The position numbers and the translations under genes are program-made. A stretch of 8,161 nucleotides of DNA from positions 1 to 8,161 of the forward strand of contig JACNFQ010000074.1 of assembly GCA_014384545.1 (NCBI GenBank), given 5' to 3'. This document shows positions 1,126 through 8,161 of this stretch, one piece after another (the stretch's first letter is position 1; the number at the start of each line of letters is the position of its first letter). Source of the DNA: a bacterium (GTDB taxonomy: Bacteria; UBP7; UBA6624). The notes under the pieces were generated by a model, which worked only from the letters and a program-made list of their open reading frames with translations, searched no databases and was not told the origin of the DNA.

Positions 1126-1962
1126 CTAGGGTGTCGTGGGGTGCAGGATGGTGTCTAGGAAGGCGAAGAGGCGGTCCGAGTAGGGATTGTCCGGTTTGGA
1201 GAGGAACTGGTTCATCCCCGCGTGGGTGGTCTCCACCTCCACGCCTTCCCCAGCCAGCCCCAGTTCCTCAAGGGCATTGAGGAAGAGATTGTTGGATTCC
1301 GGGGCGGCTGGACGGGTCGTCCAAAACAGCAGAAACGGCGGGATTCCTTTGTCTGTGTCAAGATGGGTGATGGGTGAAAAATCTGCCCATACGGGACCAG
1401 GATTCCCCAAGATACTCCTGAAGGCGGTCTCGGTGCGGGGAATCGCTTCCAGCCTAGCAAGCATATCGAACGCTGCATGGTCGGAAGAGATCACGCCCCG
1501 AATGATAGAAAGGGGCTTTTCGTACGCGCCCAAGCGCTTCTCGTCCACTGCCACCAGCGTTGCCAGATGGGCGCCCGCCGAGTGACCCGTAACAAAGAGG
1601 GCGTCGGGGTTGCCCCGATAGTCGGAGATGTGGTCATGAATCCAGGCAAGAGCCGCTGCAACATCCTCTACATGGGCGGGGTGCTTCACCGCAGGGGAGA
1701 GCCTGTAGTTGATGGAGACCAAGACAAAGCCGTTGGCATGATAAAGGGCGACCTTCTCCCGCATGTTGCTACCCCGCTTGTCACCCTTGCGCCATCCCCC
1801 ACCGTGGATTGTGACCATTACGGGGAAGGGCCCCTCCCCTTCGGGCACATAGATGTCAAGGGAATGGAACTTGGCATCAACCCCCTCCATCTCACGATAG
1901 GGGATGTCTGTGATGGCTTGGGCGGTCGGCACCACCATAGCGAGGACAAGGAGGGTGTTCAT
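1126..1962 (-). CDS. Secreted alpha/beta-hydrolase (carboxylesterase-like)
   Basis: Predicted 278 residues from ATG at 1962, chosen because GGAGGA (1970-1975) is 7 bases upstream and a signal peptide begins exactly there (MNTLLVLAMVVPTAQA). Longer in-frame GTG/ATG starts would put polar residues in front of the signal. The mature part shows the esterase/lipase fold hallmarks: oxyanion-hole HGGG at residues 53-56, the nucleophile elbow GHSAG at 126-130 (Ser128), and a candidate catalytic His247 in THAGMNQF. The acid residue is not obvious. Where relatives often carry an Asp shortly after an Arg-Pro, this protein reads TRPAAPES, so Glu222 or a nearby Asp may serve. Likely role: hydrolysis of a small ester outside the cytoplasm, substrate unknown. 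It ends with TAG, and the frame continues open beyond it. Membership of the family is well supported. Confidence 0.88.
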   Translation of the reverse strand: MNTLLVLAMVVPTAQAITDIPYREMEGVDAKFHSLDIYVPEGEGPFPVMVTIHGGGWRKGDKRGSNMREKVALYHANGFVLVSINYRLSPAVKHPAHVEDVAAALAWIHDHISDYRGNPDALFVTGHSAGAHLATLVAVDEKRLGAYEKPLSIIRGVISSDHAAFDMLARLEAIPRTETAFRSILGNPGPVWADFSPITHLDTDKGIPPFLLFWTTRPAAPESNNLFLNALEELGLAGEGVEVETTHAGMNQFLSKPDNPYSDRLFAFLDTILHPTTP

Positions 1963-1969
1963 GCCCACA

Positions 1970-1975
1970 TCCTCC
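1970..1975 (-). promoter_or_regulatory. Ribosome binding site of the esterase
   Basis: GGAGGA read on the minus strand, 7 bases before the ATG at 1962. It decides the start among several in-frame candidates (GTG at 1992, ATG at 1977, GTG at 1968, ATG at 1962), because only the last has suitable spacing and is followed at once by a signal peptide. Confidence 0.7.
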
Positions 1976-2066
1976 ATAATGAGGGGTTTCACGGGGTCGG
2001 GACAGCCGGGAGGCTCGCCCCAGCCCTATAGAGTTGGGGGGATCAGGGTTGTGCGGGTACCGGAAC

Positions 2067-3062: not shown

Positions 3063-4697
3063 TCAGCGGTAGGTTCCGTCGGGGAGAACAGTGGGGAGGT
3101 TGTAGCGTGGATTGGTTAGGAGGGCGTGGAGGTCTGGGTCGCAAAGGGCGAATGTGGCCGCAGCGGGGCAACGCCACTCGTCGCCGATCTCTGCAGGACG
3201 CCCAGCGTATTCCTGGGCACCAAGGAGGGAGGTCAATCCCCAGTAGAGGTATTCCCCCCCTTGGCAGGCATAGTCGCAGGTGCGGTCGCTGTAGGTGTAC
3301 CAAGCACGGCGGGGATATCCAAGCCAAGGGATGAGCAAGAACCGCCCCCCACGTGCCCTGTCCATCGCTTGGGTGAGGAGCGAGGGGGCACGAGAATCAA
3401 GACCAAATGCCTCGGGATAGGCCTCCACCCATCCGTTGGAGACGAGGTGAAGAACCTCTTCCAACGTCGCGTCAAACCGCCTTGACTCAAGCGAATGGGG
3501 AGGACCATAGGGGAGGGTCTCTTCTCCATACAGGTCTTGACCCAGCATCCACCCTCCCTGCTCCAAAGTCTCAATAAGATCCATCTCAAAGAGGCTCTCC
3601 ATATCCCTCTCTAGAGGCACCATGATGAGGAAAGCGCCTTCGGCGTGGAGGGCATTCATGACTTGGGTGTCGTCGGGAATGCCATCCTCGTCATTGTCCA
3701 GCCACTGGGCCAGCACATGGGCGGCGTGTTCTTGTTTGGCGGCGGAGACGCCCTCTGTCGCCACCACGGGAATCCCAAATACCTCCACCACGGTGAAAAA
3801 CGCTTCTCTGAAGGGAGCGAGACGACCCATGGTGGGAATATCAATCACCTCAAACCCCTCAAAGGGGGGAAGAGGCAAAGTGAAATGATCCGCCATGAAC
3901 TGAACAAGGGCATCCGCCATCCCTTCAACCAACAACGCCCTCTCGCCATCCGTCCCGCTGAACCTAGGGAACGGGGGGAGTTCTATCTGAACCGATTGAA
4001 GCCCCTCTTCGGTGCCAGAGCGATGGCGACGAATGATATACCCCCCCGTGAAATACCGCAAGCCATCAGGATGGGGGTGGGTGAGCGAAGGCACCGCGGG
4101 AATCCCCACCTCCTCGAGCCGTGTCCCCAAACTCCGCGGACCGCGATACCAATCTGCACGGGGAAGCTCGTCGTCTGGCTTTGCCAACTCTGAAGCGCTC
4201 ATGCCATACCCCAACTCTGCCAATCCATGGGAGTGGGCATGGCCATGGATATCCACCAAGAGTGCGCCCCCGCCCCCCGCCTTCACTGCCCCCTCCCCTG
4301 CTTCTTCTAAGAAAGCGTGGTATCCTTCCCAATGGGCGACTCGTCCTAGATGGGGGTTCTCGCCTGCGATGCCTGAACCGCTGGATTCTCTTTGTACGTT
4401 CATCTCGATGTTTGCGGGATGGATGGATAGTGCCACCACCCAGGGACGATGCCCCGTCCGCTCCTCCAAAGCGTCAGCCAATGCCCAGACAATCTCCCAA
4501 GTGTTCCCATCCCTTGGTCTTGTGCCAGGTTCAGGCCAACCTTCGGGGGTGGTTCCCCGCCCGCCATGGGGTGCTGAGAGTATCAAGGGTAGGGTGCCCC
4601 GCTCGGTTTCTAAAAAGGTTGTTTCTTGGGAGGAAGAACTATGCCCTTGCAGAGCATAGGAAAGAAGGAGAAGATAGGGAACTGGACCTAGGCTCAT
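3063..4697 (-). CDS. Exported two-domain protein: N-formylglutamate amidohydrolase-like plus uncharacterised C-terminal domain
   Basis: Predicted 544 residues from ATG at 4697, with a short hydrophobic signal-like N-terminus (VPYLLLLSYALQG) and then polar linker. Residues about 36-270 match the N-formylglutamate amidohydrolase (HutG-type) superfamily: SAPHGG at 41-46, RD at 62-63, the HWEGYHAFL helix at 122-130, DIHGHAH at 149-155, ELGYGMS at 161-167 and VQIEL at 236-240. The His and Asp/Glu residues there are the likely metal and catalytic sites. Residues about 285-544 form a second domain with VFGIPVVAT (306-314), a calcium-loop-like LDNDEDGIPDD (333-343), EEVLHLV (413-419) and an aromatic, Cys-containing block (465-495). 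I believe this C-terminal domain is conserved in secreted bacterial proteins but cannot name its function. HutG enzymes are cytoplasmic and about half this length, so a role in histidine breakdown is unlikely. An envelope peptide or amide hydrolase is a reasonable guess. Confidence 0.85.
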   Translation of the reverse strand: MSLGPVPYLLLLSYALQGHSSSSQETTFLETERGTLPLILSAPHGGRGTTPEGWPEPGTRPRDGNTWEIVWALADALEERTGHRPWVVALSIHPANIEMNVQRESSGSGIAGENPHLGRVAHWEGYHAFLEEAGEGAVKAGGGGALLVDIHGHAHSHGLAELGYGMSASELAKPDDELPRADWYRGPRSLGTRLEEVGIPAVPSLTHPHPDGLRYFTGGYIIRRHRSGTEEGLQSVQIELPPFPRFSGTDGERALLVEGMADALVQFMADHFTLPLPPFEGFEVIDIPTMGRLAPFREAFFTVVEVFGIPVVATEGVSAAKQEHAAHVLAQWLDNDEDGIPDDTQVMNALHAEGAFLIMVPLERDMESLFEMDLIETLEQGGWMLGQDLYGEETLPYGPPHSLESRRFDATLEEVLHLVSNGWVEAYPEAFGLDSRAPSLLTQAMDRARGGRFLLIPWLGYPRRAWYTYSDRTCDYACQGGEYLYWGLTSLLGAQEYAGRPAEIGDEWRCPAAATFALCDPDLHALLTNPRYNLPTVLPDGTYR

Positions 4698-4709: not shown

Positions 4710-4925
4710 CGGTCTGGAATCACGCCATGGGGTGGAGCTGGTTCTACAGGTTCCCTCCTTCAGCACAAGACGAAGGTCTACTTGGGCGCGCAAGAGGGGC
4801 AGTACGAGCGACTACTTTCTGGGGTTGCCCATGCGCCACCCTGAACCGCCCTACCACCAATCTCCCCTCCCCCCCTTCCACCACCCCGAACCAAGGGCAA
4901 ATGGAGGTGATTGAGCATGGGAGTC

Positions 4926-5858
4926 CTAGGCGGATGGCAACGGTCGGGCCCTTGAGGCGGGTGAGTTCAAGGAGGGGCTAGGGGGGGTGATGCTGTCGCA
5001 GTCGGGCACCCCGCCCTGTTTGTGGGGTTTGAAGGGGATGTTCGCAATGGGCATAGGGGGGTCGGCCAGCATCGCGGCGGGATCCCACACCCACCACATG
5101 CCGGCAAGACTGTCCCAATCGGTGGGTGTGGGGTCTCCCTTCTCCAAGAGCCCAGGAAAAGGCGCCATATGCGCAGTCATCCCCACATAGGCTGTGATGC
5201 GGCAGAACACGGAGGCGGCATCCATGGGTGGTGGGCCCGATGCGCTCCACGCAGAGCCCATGTGGGGGTTGACAGGCTCTTTCACTTGGAGCACAACGCC
5301 GGGGGTGACAGCAGCGAACCAACGCCAGCCAGCGGGAGCCCATTCCCAGTGCAGAACTTCCGAGTAGGCGAGGTTGCTGGGCTCCTTGGAGGTCCATCCC
5401 CGATGGAGACCAGTCTCTTGGTCCACCATCGCCCAAGTCCCCGTCGTCCACGTCCAATAAGAGCCAACGGGGGCATCATCAGGTGGCTCTCCCTTCCGGA
5501 GTGTGCCCGCATCCCCCAAGACGGGATTCCAGAGATTGATGCTGGCAAACTCCAGACTGGAGGCGAACTCCTCTAGGGTTGCGGGGGAAGGTCTCCAAGA
5601 GGAAGCCTCCCTGAACGCAAGGGCCAGTGTTGTCAGGTTGCCTGCCATTCTCTGCGAAGGGATGTCCACTTGGAAGCCCTGTGTCAAGTAAGCCCACGCC
5701 GTTTGATGAATGCCGGGGCCAGGCGGTCGCTTGGCGACTTGGCTAGGGCGGAGGCTCTCCCCTTCTGCAAGAGACTGGAATCCCTGCACGCATCCACCCC
5801 AACCAACCAAGAGGAGGAGGGGGGTGAAGGAGTTGGGAGGCACGCTGGGACGATTCAT
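4926..5858 (-). CDS. Lipoprotein of the cassette, minus-strand copy
   Basis: Predicted 310 residues from ATG at 5858, which overlaps the upstream gene's TGA by one base (TGATG); an earlier in-frame start would lie inside that gene. The N-terminus is a lipoprotein signal, with a hydrophobic LLLLVGW then GGC; Cys23 is the probable lipidation site. There is no Asp at +2. A core paralogous to the product of 7138-8004 follows: AGNLTTLALAF (72-82), INLWNP (107-112), GTL (118-120), GSYWTW (132-137), FAAVTPGVVLQV (181-192), FCRIT (218-222) and WWVWDPAAML (255-264). Cys219 and Cys287 are shared with the paralogue and may form a disulfide. The N-x-x-x-L-x-x-A helix, Pro-rich step and GSY strand faintly resemble the globular part of pseudopilins; that is a guess. 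The C-terminus is Pro/Ser-rich. The family is not recognised. Confidence 0.8.
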   Translation of the reverse strand: MNRPSVPPNSFTPLLLLVGWGGCVQGFQSLAEGESLRPSQVAKRPPGPGIHQTAWAYLTQGFQVDIPSQRMAGNLTTLALAFREASSWRPSPATLEEFASSLEFASINLWNPVLGDAGTLRKGEPPDDAPVGSYWTWTTGTWAMVDQETGLHRGWTSKEPSNLAYSEVLHWEWAPAGWRWFAAVTPGVVLQVKEPVNPHMGSAWSASGPPPMDAASVFCRITAYVGMTAHMAPFPGLLEKGDPTPTDWDSLAGMWWVWDPAAMLADPPMPIANIPFKPHKQGGVPDCDSITPPSPSLNSPASRARPLPSA

Positions 5859-6415
5859 CAGTTGAGACAGCACTTCTTGCACGCTTTGCATTGGATGGAT
5901 CCGCTTCCCGCCACAACCTCCTCCATTCCCACAGGCACATTCGGCACGAGGTCGCTACAGTCATAGAGGCAGCCGAGACAGTTGAACTCCACGATGGTGA
6001 CCTCTGCCAAGGAAGGAGCATAGGTGGAGCCGTCCCACCGCTTCTTGCAGATCGTGCCGCACTTTTCCGTTGATGCAACGCAGGATTGGGCGTAGGTCAC
6101 ATGGTATATGGGTTGCTCACAAGAACTCTGGATGTCGTTGCAGCACTCAATCATTCCAGCGGGGCTGCGGTTGATCTCTGTCCTCTGGATTCGTTCGCAG
6201 GATGAAACGCCCGAACACCACCAACAGAGGTCGTCCCCATCCGCCAAGAGGGCGACTGAAACGACTTGGCCCTCCTCCAAGACAGCTGCGCATCCGGGCA
6301 TCGGTTCTGTGGGGAAACCAAAAACAGTCACCAAAGGCAGACGCTCCCCAGCCTCTTCCAACCCCAACGAACCCCCCCATACCACCAAAGCCAGTAGCCC
6401 AACCAAACTCTTCAC
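5858..6415 (-). CDS. Secreted cysteine-rich protein of the cassette, minus-strand copy
   Basis: Predicted 185 residues from GTG at 6415. A longer frame reaches 6442, but that extension would translate the promoter, and GTG 6415 sits exactly 7 bases after TATACT as in the opposite copy. The first 20 residues form a signal peptide (VKSLVGLLALVVWGGSLG) resembling that of the paralogue (MRSLPLVAFLIAVWMVSLG). There are 17 Cys: positions 42, 64, 67, 73, 91, 92, 99, 112, 119, 123, 146, 149, 153, 176, 179, 182 and 183. Sixteen align well with those of the 6526-7125 product, including identical gaps of 13, 7, 23 and 3 residues. The end is CKACKKCC, a CxxCxxCC motif. Disulfide-rich folding outside the cytoplasm is most likely, though CxxC metal binding is possible. 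It is followed by, and translationally coupled to, the lipoprotein gene. Confidence 0.8.
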   Translation of the reverse strand: MKSLVGLLALVVWGGSLGLEEAGERLPLVTVFGFPTEPMPGCAAVLEEGQVVSVALLADGDDLCWWCSGVSSCERIQRTEINRSPAGMIECCNDIQSSCEQPIYHVTYAQSCVASTEKCGTICKKRWDGSTYAPSLAEVTIVEFNCLGCLYDCSDLVPNVPVGMEEVVAGSGSIQCKACKKCCLN

Positions 6416-6420
6416 GTTCC

Positions 6421-6431
6421 CGAGTATAGCA
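6421..6431 (-). promoter_or_regulatory. Extended -10 promoter of the minus-strand cassette (leaderless)
   Basis: Read on the minus strand this is TGCTATACTCG: an extended -10 (TG, one base, then TATACT at 6423-6428). Seven bases separate the box from the GTG at 6415, so the transcript should start at the start codon. It is the exact inverted copy of 6510-6520. No -35 box is clear at 16-18 bases upstream. Confidence 0.65.
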
Positions 6432-6460
6432 TAGATGCCCACCAGTTGGCGTGGTGCCGT

Positions 6461-6475
6461 CCCGTCTAGACCGGG
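6461..6475. promoter_or_regulatory. Imperfect palindrome, candidate operator between the divergent promoters
   Basis: CCCG, TCTAGA, C, CGGG: a palindrome with one extra base, centred at about 6468. The midpoint between the two -10 boxes is about 6471. A factor bound here could control both cassettes together. Support is only symmetry and position. A GACCGGG direct repeat also occurs at 6469-6475 and 6488-6494. Confidence 0.3.
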
Positions 6476-6491
6476 TGAGACCTTGGCGACC

Positions 6492-6500
6492 GGGGGGGGG
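6492..6500 (+). repeat. Run of nine G upstream of the plus-strand cassette promoter
   Basis: A nine-G tract ends 12 bases before the TATACT box at 6513-6518, inside the promoter spacer. A TTGGCG (6483-6488), four of six matches to -35, lies on its far side with a 24-base spacer. Length change in such a tract can alter promoter strength. However, G or C runs of 7-8 are common elsewhere in this window, so the tract may be incidental. Confidence 0.4.
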
Positions 6501-6509
6501 CTCTTGATG

Positions 6510-6520
6510 TGCTATACTCG
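6510..6520 (+). promoter_or_regulatory. Extended -10 promoter of the plus-strand cassette (leaderless)
   Basis: TGCTATACTCG, with TATACT at 6513-6518 preceded by TG and one base. Seven bases follow before the ATG at 6526, and there is no Shine-Dalgarno site. It repeats 6421-6431 in inverted orientation, with box sequence and distance to the start codon both identical, which strongly supports function. Confidence 0.65.
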
Positions 6521-6525
6521 AATAC

Positions 6526-7125
6526 ATGAGGTCTCTGCCCCTGGTCGCCTTCTTGATAGCTGTTTGGATGGTGTCGTTGGGGTCGGCGTGGGCACCACCT
6601 TCGTGGACTGGGGTAGAGCCGCCTGTACTCCCTTTGTTAGCGGATGGGAGAGAGGGGGAGGGTCCTTCCATCCCCGACGAGTCCCCAAGGTTTTGCCCCG
6701 CTTCAGGGGGGAAAGTAATCGCTACATACGCTGCTGGGGGCAACTGTCCCGATGCGGGTTGCCCGGGGGCTGCTTGCTTTGACTTGGCTTTCAATACTAG
6801 GACTGTAACGAACAAGAGCCAACCCTGCTGTGTGGGGTCTGGATCTTGTTTGGGGGATGTCACCATTACGGTTGTTCGCGCCTACTGCGCAGCACCGGTA
6901 AACAACTGTTCTGGTGAGGATTGTGTCCCCCGCTCGAGTGAGACATCCTCTTCGGTGGGCAACCTCTTTGAGATTACTTATGAATTTGACTGCGCGGATT
7001 GTTGCCAATGTGGACCGGGTTGCCCTGATCCCCCAGCCGTCTGTTGCGCCCTCATAGAAGAGGACCGAACGGATATTGTCCCTACAGCAGTTCAATGTCC
7101 CGACTGTGATCTATGTTGTGAATAG
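6526..7125 (+). CDS. Secreted cysteine-rich protein of the cassette, plus-strand copy
   Basis: Predicted 199 residues from ATG at 6526, the only start compatible with the adjacent promoter. The signal peptide is about residues 1-22 (MRSLPLVAFLIAVWMVSLGSAW), followed by a Pro-rich linker to about residue 55. The mature part has 21 Cys (57, 74, 79, 84, 101, 102, 108, 121, 128, 133, 156, 159, 160, 162, 166, 173, 174, 191, 194, 197, 198). Two beta-like stretches precede Cys residues (VTITVVRAYC, LFEITYEFDC), and matching stretches occur in the minus-strand paralogue (IYHVTYAQSC, AEVTIVEFNC). The end is CPDCDLCC, the same CxxCxxCC motif. A Cys-dense insert, CCQCGPGC and then CC at 173-174, is extra in this copy. 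The stop TAG at 7123-7125 overlaps the ribosome binding site of the lipoprotein gene 12 bases downstream. Function is unknown; extracellular or periplasmic disulfide-rich structure is likely. Confidence 0.82.
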   Translation: MRSLPLVAFLIAVWMVSLGSAWAPPSWTGVEPPVLPLLADGREGEGPSIPDESPRFCPASGGKVIATYAAGGNCPDAGCPGAACFDLAFNTRTVTNKSQPCCVGSGSCLGDVTITVVRAYCAAPVNNCSGEDCVPRSSETSSSVGNLFEITYEFDCADCCQCGPGCPDPPAVCCALIEEDRTDIVPTAVQCPDCDLCCE

Positions 7126-7129
7126 GAGG
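7124..7129 (+). promoter_or_regulatory. Ribosome binding site of the plus-strand lipoprotein gene
   Basis: AGGAGG, 8 bases before the ATG at 7138. It overlaps the TAG of the upstream gene and selects ATG 7138 over ATG 7144. It shows that the second gene uses normal Shine-Dalgarno initiation while the first appears leaderless. Confidence 0.75.
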
Positions 7130-7137
7130 GATGGAAT

Positions 7138-8004
7138 ATGACCATGAGAGTGTTTCTTGGTGCGGGCTTGTTCTTTGTGGGCTTGGCGGGGTGTCTGGGT
7201 ACGAGGGAGAATGCCCAGCCCCTTCAAGATACTGTACCCGCTCCGTCCGTTCTCCAGCGTGAGGATAGAGGGTGGGAATCGACGCCAGGGTCTCTCCTCC
7301 CCAGTCTTGAGGAAGAGGGGTGGAGCGACGAGGATCGCCGGGTAGTGGGCAACCTCCATGCCTTGACGATCGCCTTCAACCAAACTTCGAAGTGGGCTCC
7401 TTCGCCAGCGTCAATTGATCTCTTTGAGCAGACGCCTGCGTTCAAGGCGATCAACCTGTGGAACCCCTTTCTGGATGAGCCAGGGACACTTCTTCTTGGT
7501 CCCCCCATTGACAAGGAGAGGATGGCCTTAGGGAGTTATTCCTCTTGGGCAGAGGGAAAGAAGAGGTACTTCGCAGGGGGAATCCAAAGTGGCGTGGTGG
7601 TCGTGGAGGCGGAGCAGCATGCCGACGGCTGGGGGAACGCGGAGACCGAGGGGTATGAGTCTGCCGATTCGAACGAATGGACCCAACCGCTGGCGACGTG
7701 CAGACTGATGTCCAAGGTGGCTCTACTGACGACGCCGCAACTTACGAAGGCAGATAAAGGTCCAGCCAGAAGTTTGGACGAACTCAAGACCTACTGGTGG
7801 CTTTGGGACCACGCCGCGGTGTTGGAGAGGGCTTCCTTCAGGGAAGAGAGTCTCTCTGTTCACTGGTTGGGGAAAGATCTGTTTGGCATGGTGGATTGCC
7901 TTGTGGATGGTGAATCCGTCTGGCAGCACTCCCCTCTCCAGGGAGACAGCATCCTCGCCGATATGGCGACCCTTCCCCCGTTGGATTGGGTCAGGGATCC
8001 CTAG
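7138..8004 (+). CDS. Lipoprotein of the cassette, plus-strand copy
   Basis: Predicted 288 residues. The N-terminus is a clear lipoprotein signal: MRVFLGAG, a hydrophobic stretch, then lipobox LAGC with Cys19 as the lipidation site. A polar, probably disordered stretch (about 20-65) links the anchor to the core. The core is paralogous to the product of 4926-5858: VGNLHALTIAF (70-80), WAPSPAS (86-92), INLWNP (105-110), GTL (116-118), GSYSSW (132-137), SGVVVVEAE (151-159), TCRL (187-190) and YWWLWDHAAVL (219-229). Cys188 and Cys254 match Cys219 and Cys287 of the paralogue. It is not recognised as a known family; the core vaguely resembles the globular part of a pseudopilin. It is co-transcribed with the cysteine-rich gene, so the lipoprotein may anchor or assemble that protein at the membrane. 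It ends with TAG at 8002-8004, with no clear terminator after it. Confidence 0.83.
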   Translation: MTMRVFLGAGLFFVGLAGCLGTRENAQPLQDTVPAPSVLQREDRGWESTPGSLLPSLEEEGWSDEDRRVVGNLHALTIAFNQTSKWAPSPASIDLFEQTPAFKAINLWNPFLDEPGTLLLGPPIDKERMALGSYSSWAEGKKRYFAGGIQSGVVVVEAEQHADGWGNAETEGYESADSNEWTQPLATCRLMSKVALLTTPQLTKADKGPARSLDELKTYWWLWDHAAVLERASFREESLSVHWLGKDLFGMVDCLVDGESVWQHSPLQGDSILADMATLPPLDWVRDP

Positions 8005-8161
8005 CACCCATATCTTCAACCTTTCCTCGCTTGCAGCCTGGATGTTCGTTGGATTGGTTCGGGGGCGTCGGGGCGTTGGAGGTTTCTCTTGCGCAAGACC
8101 CCCCACAGCCTCCCAGATGATGAGGAGGGCTAAGACGAAGTTGCCAGCCCCCACAACCAAG

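What the first reader, a model, noticed from the sequence alone, without database searches (positions are those of the whole stretch)
4926..8004. Divergently duplicated two-gene cassette: cysteine-rich secreted protein plus lipoprotein
Both halves have the same gene order. First comes a signal-peptide protein with 17 or 21 Cys and a terminal CxxCxxCC. Then comes a lipoprotein whose core shares NLxxLxxAF, INLWNP, GTL, GSY and WWxWDxAAxL blocks and two conserved Cys. The partners are coupled (one-base overlap in one copy, 12-base gap with strong ribosome binding site in the other). Conserved order, coupling and co-duplication despite strong divergence suggest that the two proteins function as a pair, perhaps a surface or envelope assembly with a lipid-anchored partner. 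I know of no described system of this form.
Basis: partly seen in the sequence, partly recalled or inferred. Interest (0 to 1): 0.85.

Follow-up and report, generated by a model that had tools for sequence, protein, structure and literature searches.

The report
Multicopy secreted-protein plus lipoprotein gene pairs
One little-known bacterium carries at least seven diverged copies of the same two-gene unit, a cysteine-rich exported protein followed by a lipid-anchored protein, all run from one shared switch and found nowhere else searched; the function is unproven, but the pattern looks like a variable cell-surface pair or a toxin with its antidote.

Summary
The window's two divergent units belong to a family of seven complete cysteine-rich/lipoprotein pairs, plus one lipoprotein relic, in this 1.39 Mb metagenome-assembled genome. 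All seven full lipoproteins directly follow a cysteine-rich gene. The lipoproteins are homologous by pairwise comparison; the cysteine-rich partners only by profile. Neither family was found in 59 (lipoprotein) or 40 (cysteine-rich) relatives including both same-family genomes. The lipoproteins were also absent from GTDB species genomes, IMG/VR, phages and plasmids. Neither has a significant match in Pfam, NCBIfam, PHROGs or PDB sequences. All seven promoters share a TCTAGA operator core; six have a -10 box exactly 7 nt before the start codon, implying leaderless transcripts. Two neighbouring copies share 97% identity over the leader and 44% beyond it, a mosaic. Three of seven cysteine-rich genes are broken and one lipoprotein end is scrambled. 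The predicted lipoprotein core (pTM 0.72) matches no solved fold convincingly. The best reading is a lineage-restricted, recombining regulon of envelope pairs, most likely a secreted disulfide-rich protein bound by an outer-membrane lipoprotein. Toxin-immunity is the main rival.

The parts
5858..6415 (-). cysteine-rich exported protein, copy W- (17 Cys, GTG start 7 nt after TATACT; open frame extends to 6442)
4926..5858 (-). lipoprotein partner, copy W- (310 aa, lipobox VGWGGC, 1-nt overlap with the upstream gene; aberrant C-terminus)
6526..7125 (+). cysteine-rich exported protein, copy W+ (199 aa, 21 Cys, signal peptide, C-terminal CPDCDLCC)
7138..8004 (+). lipoprotein partner, copy W+ (288 aa, lipobox GLAGC)
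7124..7129 (+). AGGAGG ribosome-binding site before the W+ lipoprotein, overlapping the stop codon of the cysteine-rich gene
   Evidence: sequence
6465..6470 (.). TCTAGA core of the operator-like element, shared by both divergent units; invariant in 7 of 7 cassette promoters
6513..6518 (+). -10 element TATACT of W+ (TG-extended), 7 nt before the ATG
6423..6428 (-). -10 element TATACT of W- (TG-extended), 7 nt before GTG 6415
6492..6500 (+). run of 9 G between operator and -10 of W+; 8, 11, 9 and 8 G in four other cassette promoters
8095..8161 (-). remnant of the 3' end of cstA, continuing into contig C89 (1-90); mark of the duplication that made the array
4795..4974 (-). [quoted passage not shown]

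Best explanation
The window holds two of at least seven copies of a lineage-restricted two-gene unit. Shown: strict pairing, shared promoter elements, family homology, mosaic copies. Strongly implied: leaderless mRNA from a TATACT box, and coupled translation of the second gene. Inferred from sequence: the first product is exported by Sec and is disulfide-rich; the second is an outer-membrane lipoprotein (no Asp at +2) with a tether of roughly 25-50 residues and a conserved folded core. Most likely (inference): the lipoprotein core binds its own cysteine-rich partner at the outer membrane and holds or displays it. Partner sequence diversity across copies, made by tandem duplication, partial gene conversion of the promoter-leader segment and long divergence, would then give a set of alternative surface pairs under one regulator.
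For: Seven pairs plus a relic in one genome, every full lipoprotein directly behind a cysteine-rich gene. Near-zero intergenic distances. Common operator/-10 architecture: TCTAGA 7/7, -10 to start exactly 7 nt in 6/7, against 1 of 180 candidate starts at that distance on a 98-kb contig of the same genome. The pattern GTCTAGA-N15-45-TATACT hits five places genome-wide, all cassette promoters, with one control hit. The lipoprotein core is modelled with pLDDT mostly above 80 after a disordered stretch of about 25 residues behind the lipobox. The partner is the more variable member: 20-36% against 25-37% identity outside the C89 pair. The genome encodes an Omp85 protein, so it is diderm, and a sub-threshold VKOR-like protein that would suit disulfide formation. 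Mosaic: 97% then 44% nucleotide identity within one gene pair.
Against: No direct evidence of binding or localisation. Tree congruence between partners rests mainly on one close pair (r=0.82, exact Mantel p=0.004; r=0.42 without it). Three of seven cysteine-rich genes are broken, which is odd if the pair works only as a pair. No fold match identifies the lipoprotein.
Confidence: 0.45

Rival explanations
1. Antagonism system: the cysteine-rich protein is a secreted bacteriocin-like toxin and the coupled lipoprotein is its cognate immunity protein, intercepting it in the periplasm or at the cell surface.
For: Effector-first, partner-second order with overlap or tight coupling; multicopy and diverse; recently shared leader followed by unlike bodies; three cysteine-rich genes interrupted (C61a and C95 by frameshift, C89b by TGA) while the lipoprotein frame behind each stays open; a lipoprotein relic without partner on C97. 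Immunity genes immediately downstream of toxin genes are typical of polymorphic toxin systems (PMC4287609).
Against: No toxin or immunity domain matched in Pfam, NCBIfam or (lipoprotein only) PADLOC. Immunity lipoproteins are rare: the 2012 survey had one, Imm65 (PMC3482391). The lipoprotein is larger and more conserved than the putative toxin. The breakage asymmetry is 3/7 against 1/7 with an altered end, too few to be significant. SelA was not found, so the C89b TGA is probably a plain stop.
Confidence: 0.27
2. The lipoprotein is a dedicated chaperone, folding or export partner for the cysteine-rich protein, whose own role is structural or metal-binding, and the copies are redundant paralogues drifting apart.
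For: Strict pairing and order; invariant cysteine pattern without other conserved chemistry; frequent decay (C61a, C95, C89b, C97).
Against: One generic chaperone would suffice; keeping seven separate lipoproteins argues for cognate specificity. Lipoprotein dN is below dS even where dS is near saturation, so the lipoproteins are under constraint.
Confidence: 0.15
3. Phase-variable surface antigens: length changes of the promoter G-run switch single cassettes on and off.
For: Runs of 8-11 G between operator and -10 in five of seven promoters, with different lengths in otherwise near-identical flanks (8 against 11 in C89a/C89b).
Against: Runs of 8 or more G are common across this genome (432 overlapping 8-mer matches; 19 of 21 tracts on contig C16 lie in long open frames). 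W- and C95 lack the run. A metagenome consensus cannot show switching.
Confidence: 0.08

Closest known systems
Neisseria maf islands (MafA lipoprotein, MafB secreted toxin, MafI immunity)
   Same: genus-restricted multicopy loci pairing a surface lipoprotein with a signal-peptide protein that has a constant front and variable back (PMC4287609, PMC3482391)
   Different: order reversed (mafA upstream); MafB carries recognisable toxin domains and a separate MafI; no such domain or third gene seen here
Imm65, lipoprotein immunity of polymorphic toxin systems
   Same: lipid-anchored downstream partner
   Different: the lipoproteins here match no Pfam family above cut-off; there is no JAB toxin domain upstream
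Cdz two-protein bacteriocin of Caulobacter (CdzC/D with CdzI)
   Same: small exported surface proteins encoded with a downstream membrane-associated protein (PMC5380434)
   Different: Cdz uses type I secretion, glycine zippers and a transmembrane immunity protein; here Sec-type signals, disulfide-rich proteins and lipoproteins
Myxococcus SitA lipoprotein toxins with SitI (own knowledge, not tested)
   Same: multicopy, polymorphic, lipoprotein with partner gene
   Different: the toxin is the lipoprotein there, delivered by TraAB outer-membrane exchange

Membership tests
Polymorphic toxin-immunity systems | recognisable C-terminal toxin domain in the upstream protein | tested here: inconclusive
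   no significant family match for any of 7 cysteine-rich proteins in Pfam, NCBIfam or PHROGs; a new toxin type would not be seen
Polymorphic toxin-immunity systems | downstream adjacent partner gene specific to each effector | tested here: met
   7 of 7 full lipoprotein genes adjacent and downstream; specificity itself not tested
Polymorphic toxin-immunity systems | conserved front with sharply variable back in the effector | tested here: met
   C89a/C89b: 97% over the first 64 codons, 44% after; only one pair is this clear
Polymorphic toxin-immunity systems | partner protects against effector toxicity | not testable with these tools
   needs expression assays
Neisseria Maf system | MafB N-terminal domain and MafI downstream | tested here: not met
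   no Pfam or NCBIfam match above cut-off; gene order reversed
Bacterial lipoproteins (diderm, outer membrane) | lipobox cysteine, residue +2 not Asp, diderm envelope | tested here: met
   invariant GC at the signal end in 7/7, +2 residue V, L or H; Omp85 present
Selenoproteins (in-frame TGA of the C89b cysteine-rich gene) | selenocysteine machinery in the genome | tested here: not met
   no SelA match; genome 79% complete, so the absence is soft

The most novel reading that the evidence does not exclude
A new class of diversified envelope pair, disulfide-rich ligand plus cognate lipoprotein with no solved-structure match, kept as a coordinated and possibly phase-variable regulon of seven or more cassettes in an uncultured deep-branching bacterial lineage, working in cell-cell recognition or antagonism.
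Probability: 0.3. Interest if true: 0.8.

Novelty: new variant of a known kind. Interest (0 to 1): 0.55.

Why it matters
Multicopy, recombining secreted-protein/lipoprotein pairs usually mark where a bacterium meets rivals, hosts or phages. Here both protein families are unmatched in every collection searched and come from a lineage with two known relatives, so the case points to an undescribed interaction system. The seven natural variants and the shared operator make pairing specificity and regulation directly testable.

Tried and rejected
Pilin-like or internally repeated lipoprotein core: suggested by the helix-strand order of the model, but hhalign of the two halves gave probability 2% and a score of 18.3 against a shuffled maximum of 16.0, and Foldseek against PDB and viral models had no hit below E 0.2; VIA-align best Z 2.9 over 80 residues. 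Poly-G tracts as a special feature: common genome-wide, mostly in open frames. Selenocysteine at the C89b TGA: no SelA. Fold of the cysteine-rich protein: pLDDT 42, unusable. Taxonomy: no 16S found; IspH, best outside hit 57% to a WOR-3 metagenome bin followed by Gammaproteobacteria, does not settle the phylum. A cysteine-rich ORF listing was spoiled by a script error and was repeated correctly. The NCBIfam L-ring and Pfam DAP3/LIM hits are far below cut-off or weak single-member matches.

Full report
WHAT WAS CHECKED. The window is a whole contig (C4, 8161 bp) of a 1.39 Mb, 107-contig genome estimated 79% complete. Only two other genomes of its family are held; the next kin are listed as 'same domain'. 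The four genes of the finding are present as described. The two lipoproteins are clearly homologous (29% over 206 aa, E=8e-17). The two cysteine-rich proteins are not demonstrably homologous by themselves (E=0.11).

THE FAMILY. Searching the same genome with one lipoprotein found further copies on contigs C61 (two), C89 (two), C95 and C97. With a seven-member profile there are seven full lipoproteins and one relic with an internal stop on C97. The profile of their partners finds exactly seven cysteine-rich genes, each directly upstream of a full lipoprotein. Leave-one-out profiles score every cysteine-rich member above the maximum of 200 composition-preserving shuffles (W+ 20.8 vs 4.4; weakest C61a 5.5 vs -2.0), so the partners are one family, held together mainly by cysteines. 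Lipoprotein identities are 25-48%; cysteine-rich identities are 20-36%, apart from 62% for C89a/C89b.

DISTRIBUTION. No lipoprotein match in 59 other genomes including the two family members. None in 84,980 GTDB species genomes, IMG/VR, plasmids or phages. The GTDB and IMG/VR scans depend on short conserved stretches and may leave out near relatives. The cysteine-rich profile is absent from 40 relatives. No family library or PDB sequence matched significantly.

ARRAY AND DUPLICATION. The last 55 bases of the window equal the first 55 of contig C89, as neighbouring edges of an assembly graph would, so C4 and C89 are probably adjacent (inference). The array then reads W- (left), W+ (right), a cstA 3' remnant, C89a, C89b, and complete cstA. 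The remnant matches the last part of the CstA encoded at C89:3553-5202, as a tandem duplication of the cassette-cstA junction would leave.

MOSAIC STRUCTURE. C89a and C89b share 95.8% over 265 bp covering promoter, signal peptide and the first 64 codons. In codon alignment the first 64 codons are 97.4% identical and the rest 43.6%. The lipoproteins are 55% identical in nucleotides but about 90% over their last 48 bp. A recent gene conversion of the 5' block onto long-diverged bodies explains this best (inference).

PROMOTER. Aligned upstream regions show TCTAGA in all seven and the fuller AAGGTCTCAAAACGGTCTAGAC, with GGTCT half-sites 11 bp apart, in W-, C89a, C89b and C61a with small changes. 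The -10 is TATACT in six and TATGAT in C61b. It lies exactly 7 nt before the start codon in six and 9 nt in C95, so transcription would begin at or next to the start codon: leaderless mRNA (inference). On the 98-kb contig C16 only one of 180 candidate starts has such a box at 7 nt and one at 6 nt. Genome-wide the pattern GTCTAGA-N15-45-TATACT hits five sites, all cassette promoters, against one control hit. In the window the palindromic TCTAGA (6465-6470) serves both divergent units. Five promoters carry runs of 8-11 G between operator and -10, but such runs are common in this genome, so phase variation is only a possibility.

DECAY. C61a: the signal peptide is in another frame than the cysteine-rich body. 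C95: likewise, with a shift near GGGGGAGGCGGGGG. C89b: TGA where C89a has TGC, removing the last cysteines. The bodies of C61a and C95 are still open, which shuffles rarely give, so the shifts are recent or artefacts of consensus. The W- lipoprotein has lost the family's GSVWxW end and runs into a remnant of an unrelated lipoprotein gene. The C97 copy is a relic. Cysteine-rich genes are thus damaged more often than lipoproteins (3/7 vs 1/7), suggestive of a dispensable effector with a retained partner but too few to weigh heavily.

PROTEINS. Lipobox cysteines are invariant and no +2 residue is Asp; the genome has Omp85. This suggests outer-membrane lipoproteins by the usual sorting rule (established knowledge from Proteobacteria; inferred here). 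The C89b lipoprotein model has pTM 0.72, a low-confidence N-terminal region to residue 55 (about 26 residues after the lipobox cysteine) and a confident alpha/beta core without a convincing solved or viral relative. A weak search result does not prove a new fold. The cysteine-rich model is unusable. A VKOR-like protein below the family cut-off is encoded on C97.

MECHANISM. Shown: pairing, family, shared promoter elements, mosaic, decay. Implied by sequence: Sec export, lipidation, disulfides, coupled translation. Inferred: the lipoprotein binds its own partner at the outer envelope. I favour display or holding of a variable disulfide-rich protein (0.45) over toxin-immunity (0.27), because the lipoprotein is the larger and more conserved member and carries a flexible tether, and immunity lipoproteins are rare. 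Gene order, coupling and the damage pattern fit toxin-immunity well, and a simple expression test would separate the two.

KNOWN SYSTEMS. Maf islands of Neisseria are the nearest parallel in logic, but MafB/MafI features are not met. Cdz differs in secretion and protein type. No paper found describes this arrangement.

Noticed in passing
window 4795-4974 (-) and C61 (L010) 6180-7154 (+): A second, unrelated lipoprotein family: an intact gene on C61 and a 60%-identical 60-aa remnant in the window behind the W- lipoprotein.
   Followed up: partly
whole genome; e.g. G000:C19:30453-30482: G/C runs of 8 or more are frequent (432 overlapping 8-mer matches), mostly within open frames on contig C16; two long neighbouring runs on C19.
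   Followed up: partly
L011 2484-2486 (C89b): In-frame TGA replaces a TGC cysteine codon near the end of a cysteine-rich gene; the frame continues with the family's CC end. SelA not found.
   Followed up: yes
L010 5205-5798 (-), 14207-14713 (-), 5927-6313 (+): Further cysteine-containing ORFs (8-13 Cys) on C61; the first and second have no Pfam match.
   Followed up: no
window 3063-4697 (-): 544-aa protein with a weak, sub-threshold match to N-formylglutamate amidohydrolase (E 0.0023).
   Followed up: no
window 1126-1992 (-): Alpha/beta-hydrolase, BD-FAE type (E 1.2e-32).
   Followed up: no
L013 3664-4017 (+): Short VKOR-like membrane protein with CxxC, below the Pfam cut-off.
   Followed up: no
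L012 4645-5910 (+): 421-aa protein very rich in Gly, Met, His and Gln with tandem repeats, no Pfam match.
   Followed up: no
L012 1-98 and L013 98-1: Inverted 98-bp match (97%) at the ends of contigs C95 and C97, perhaps a repeat or an assembly edge.
   Followed up: no
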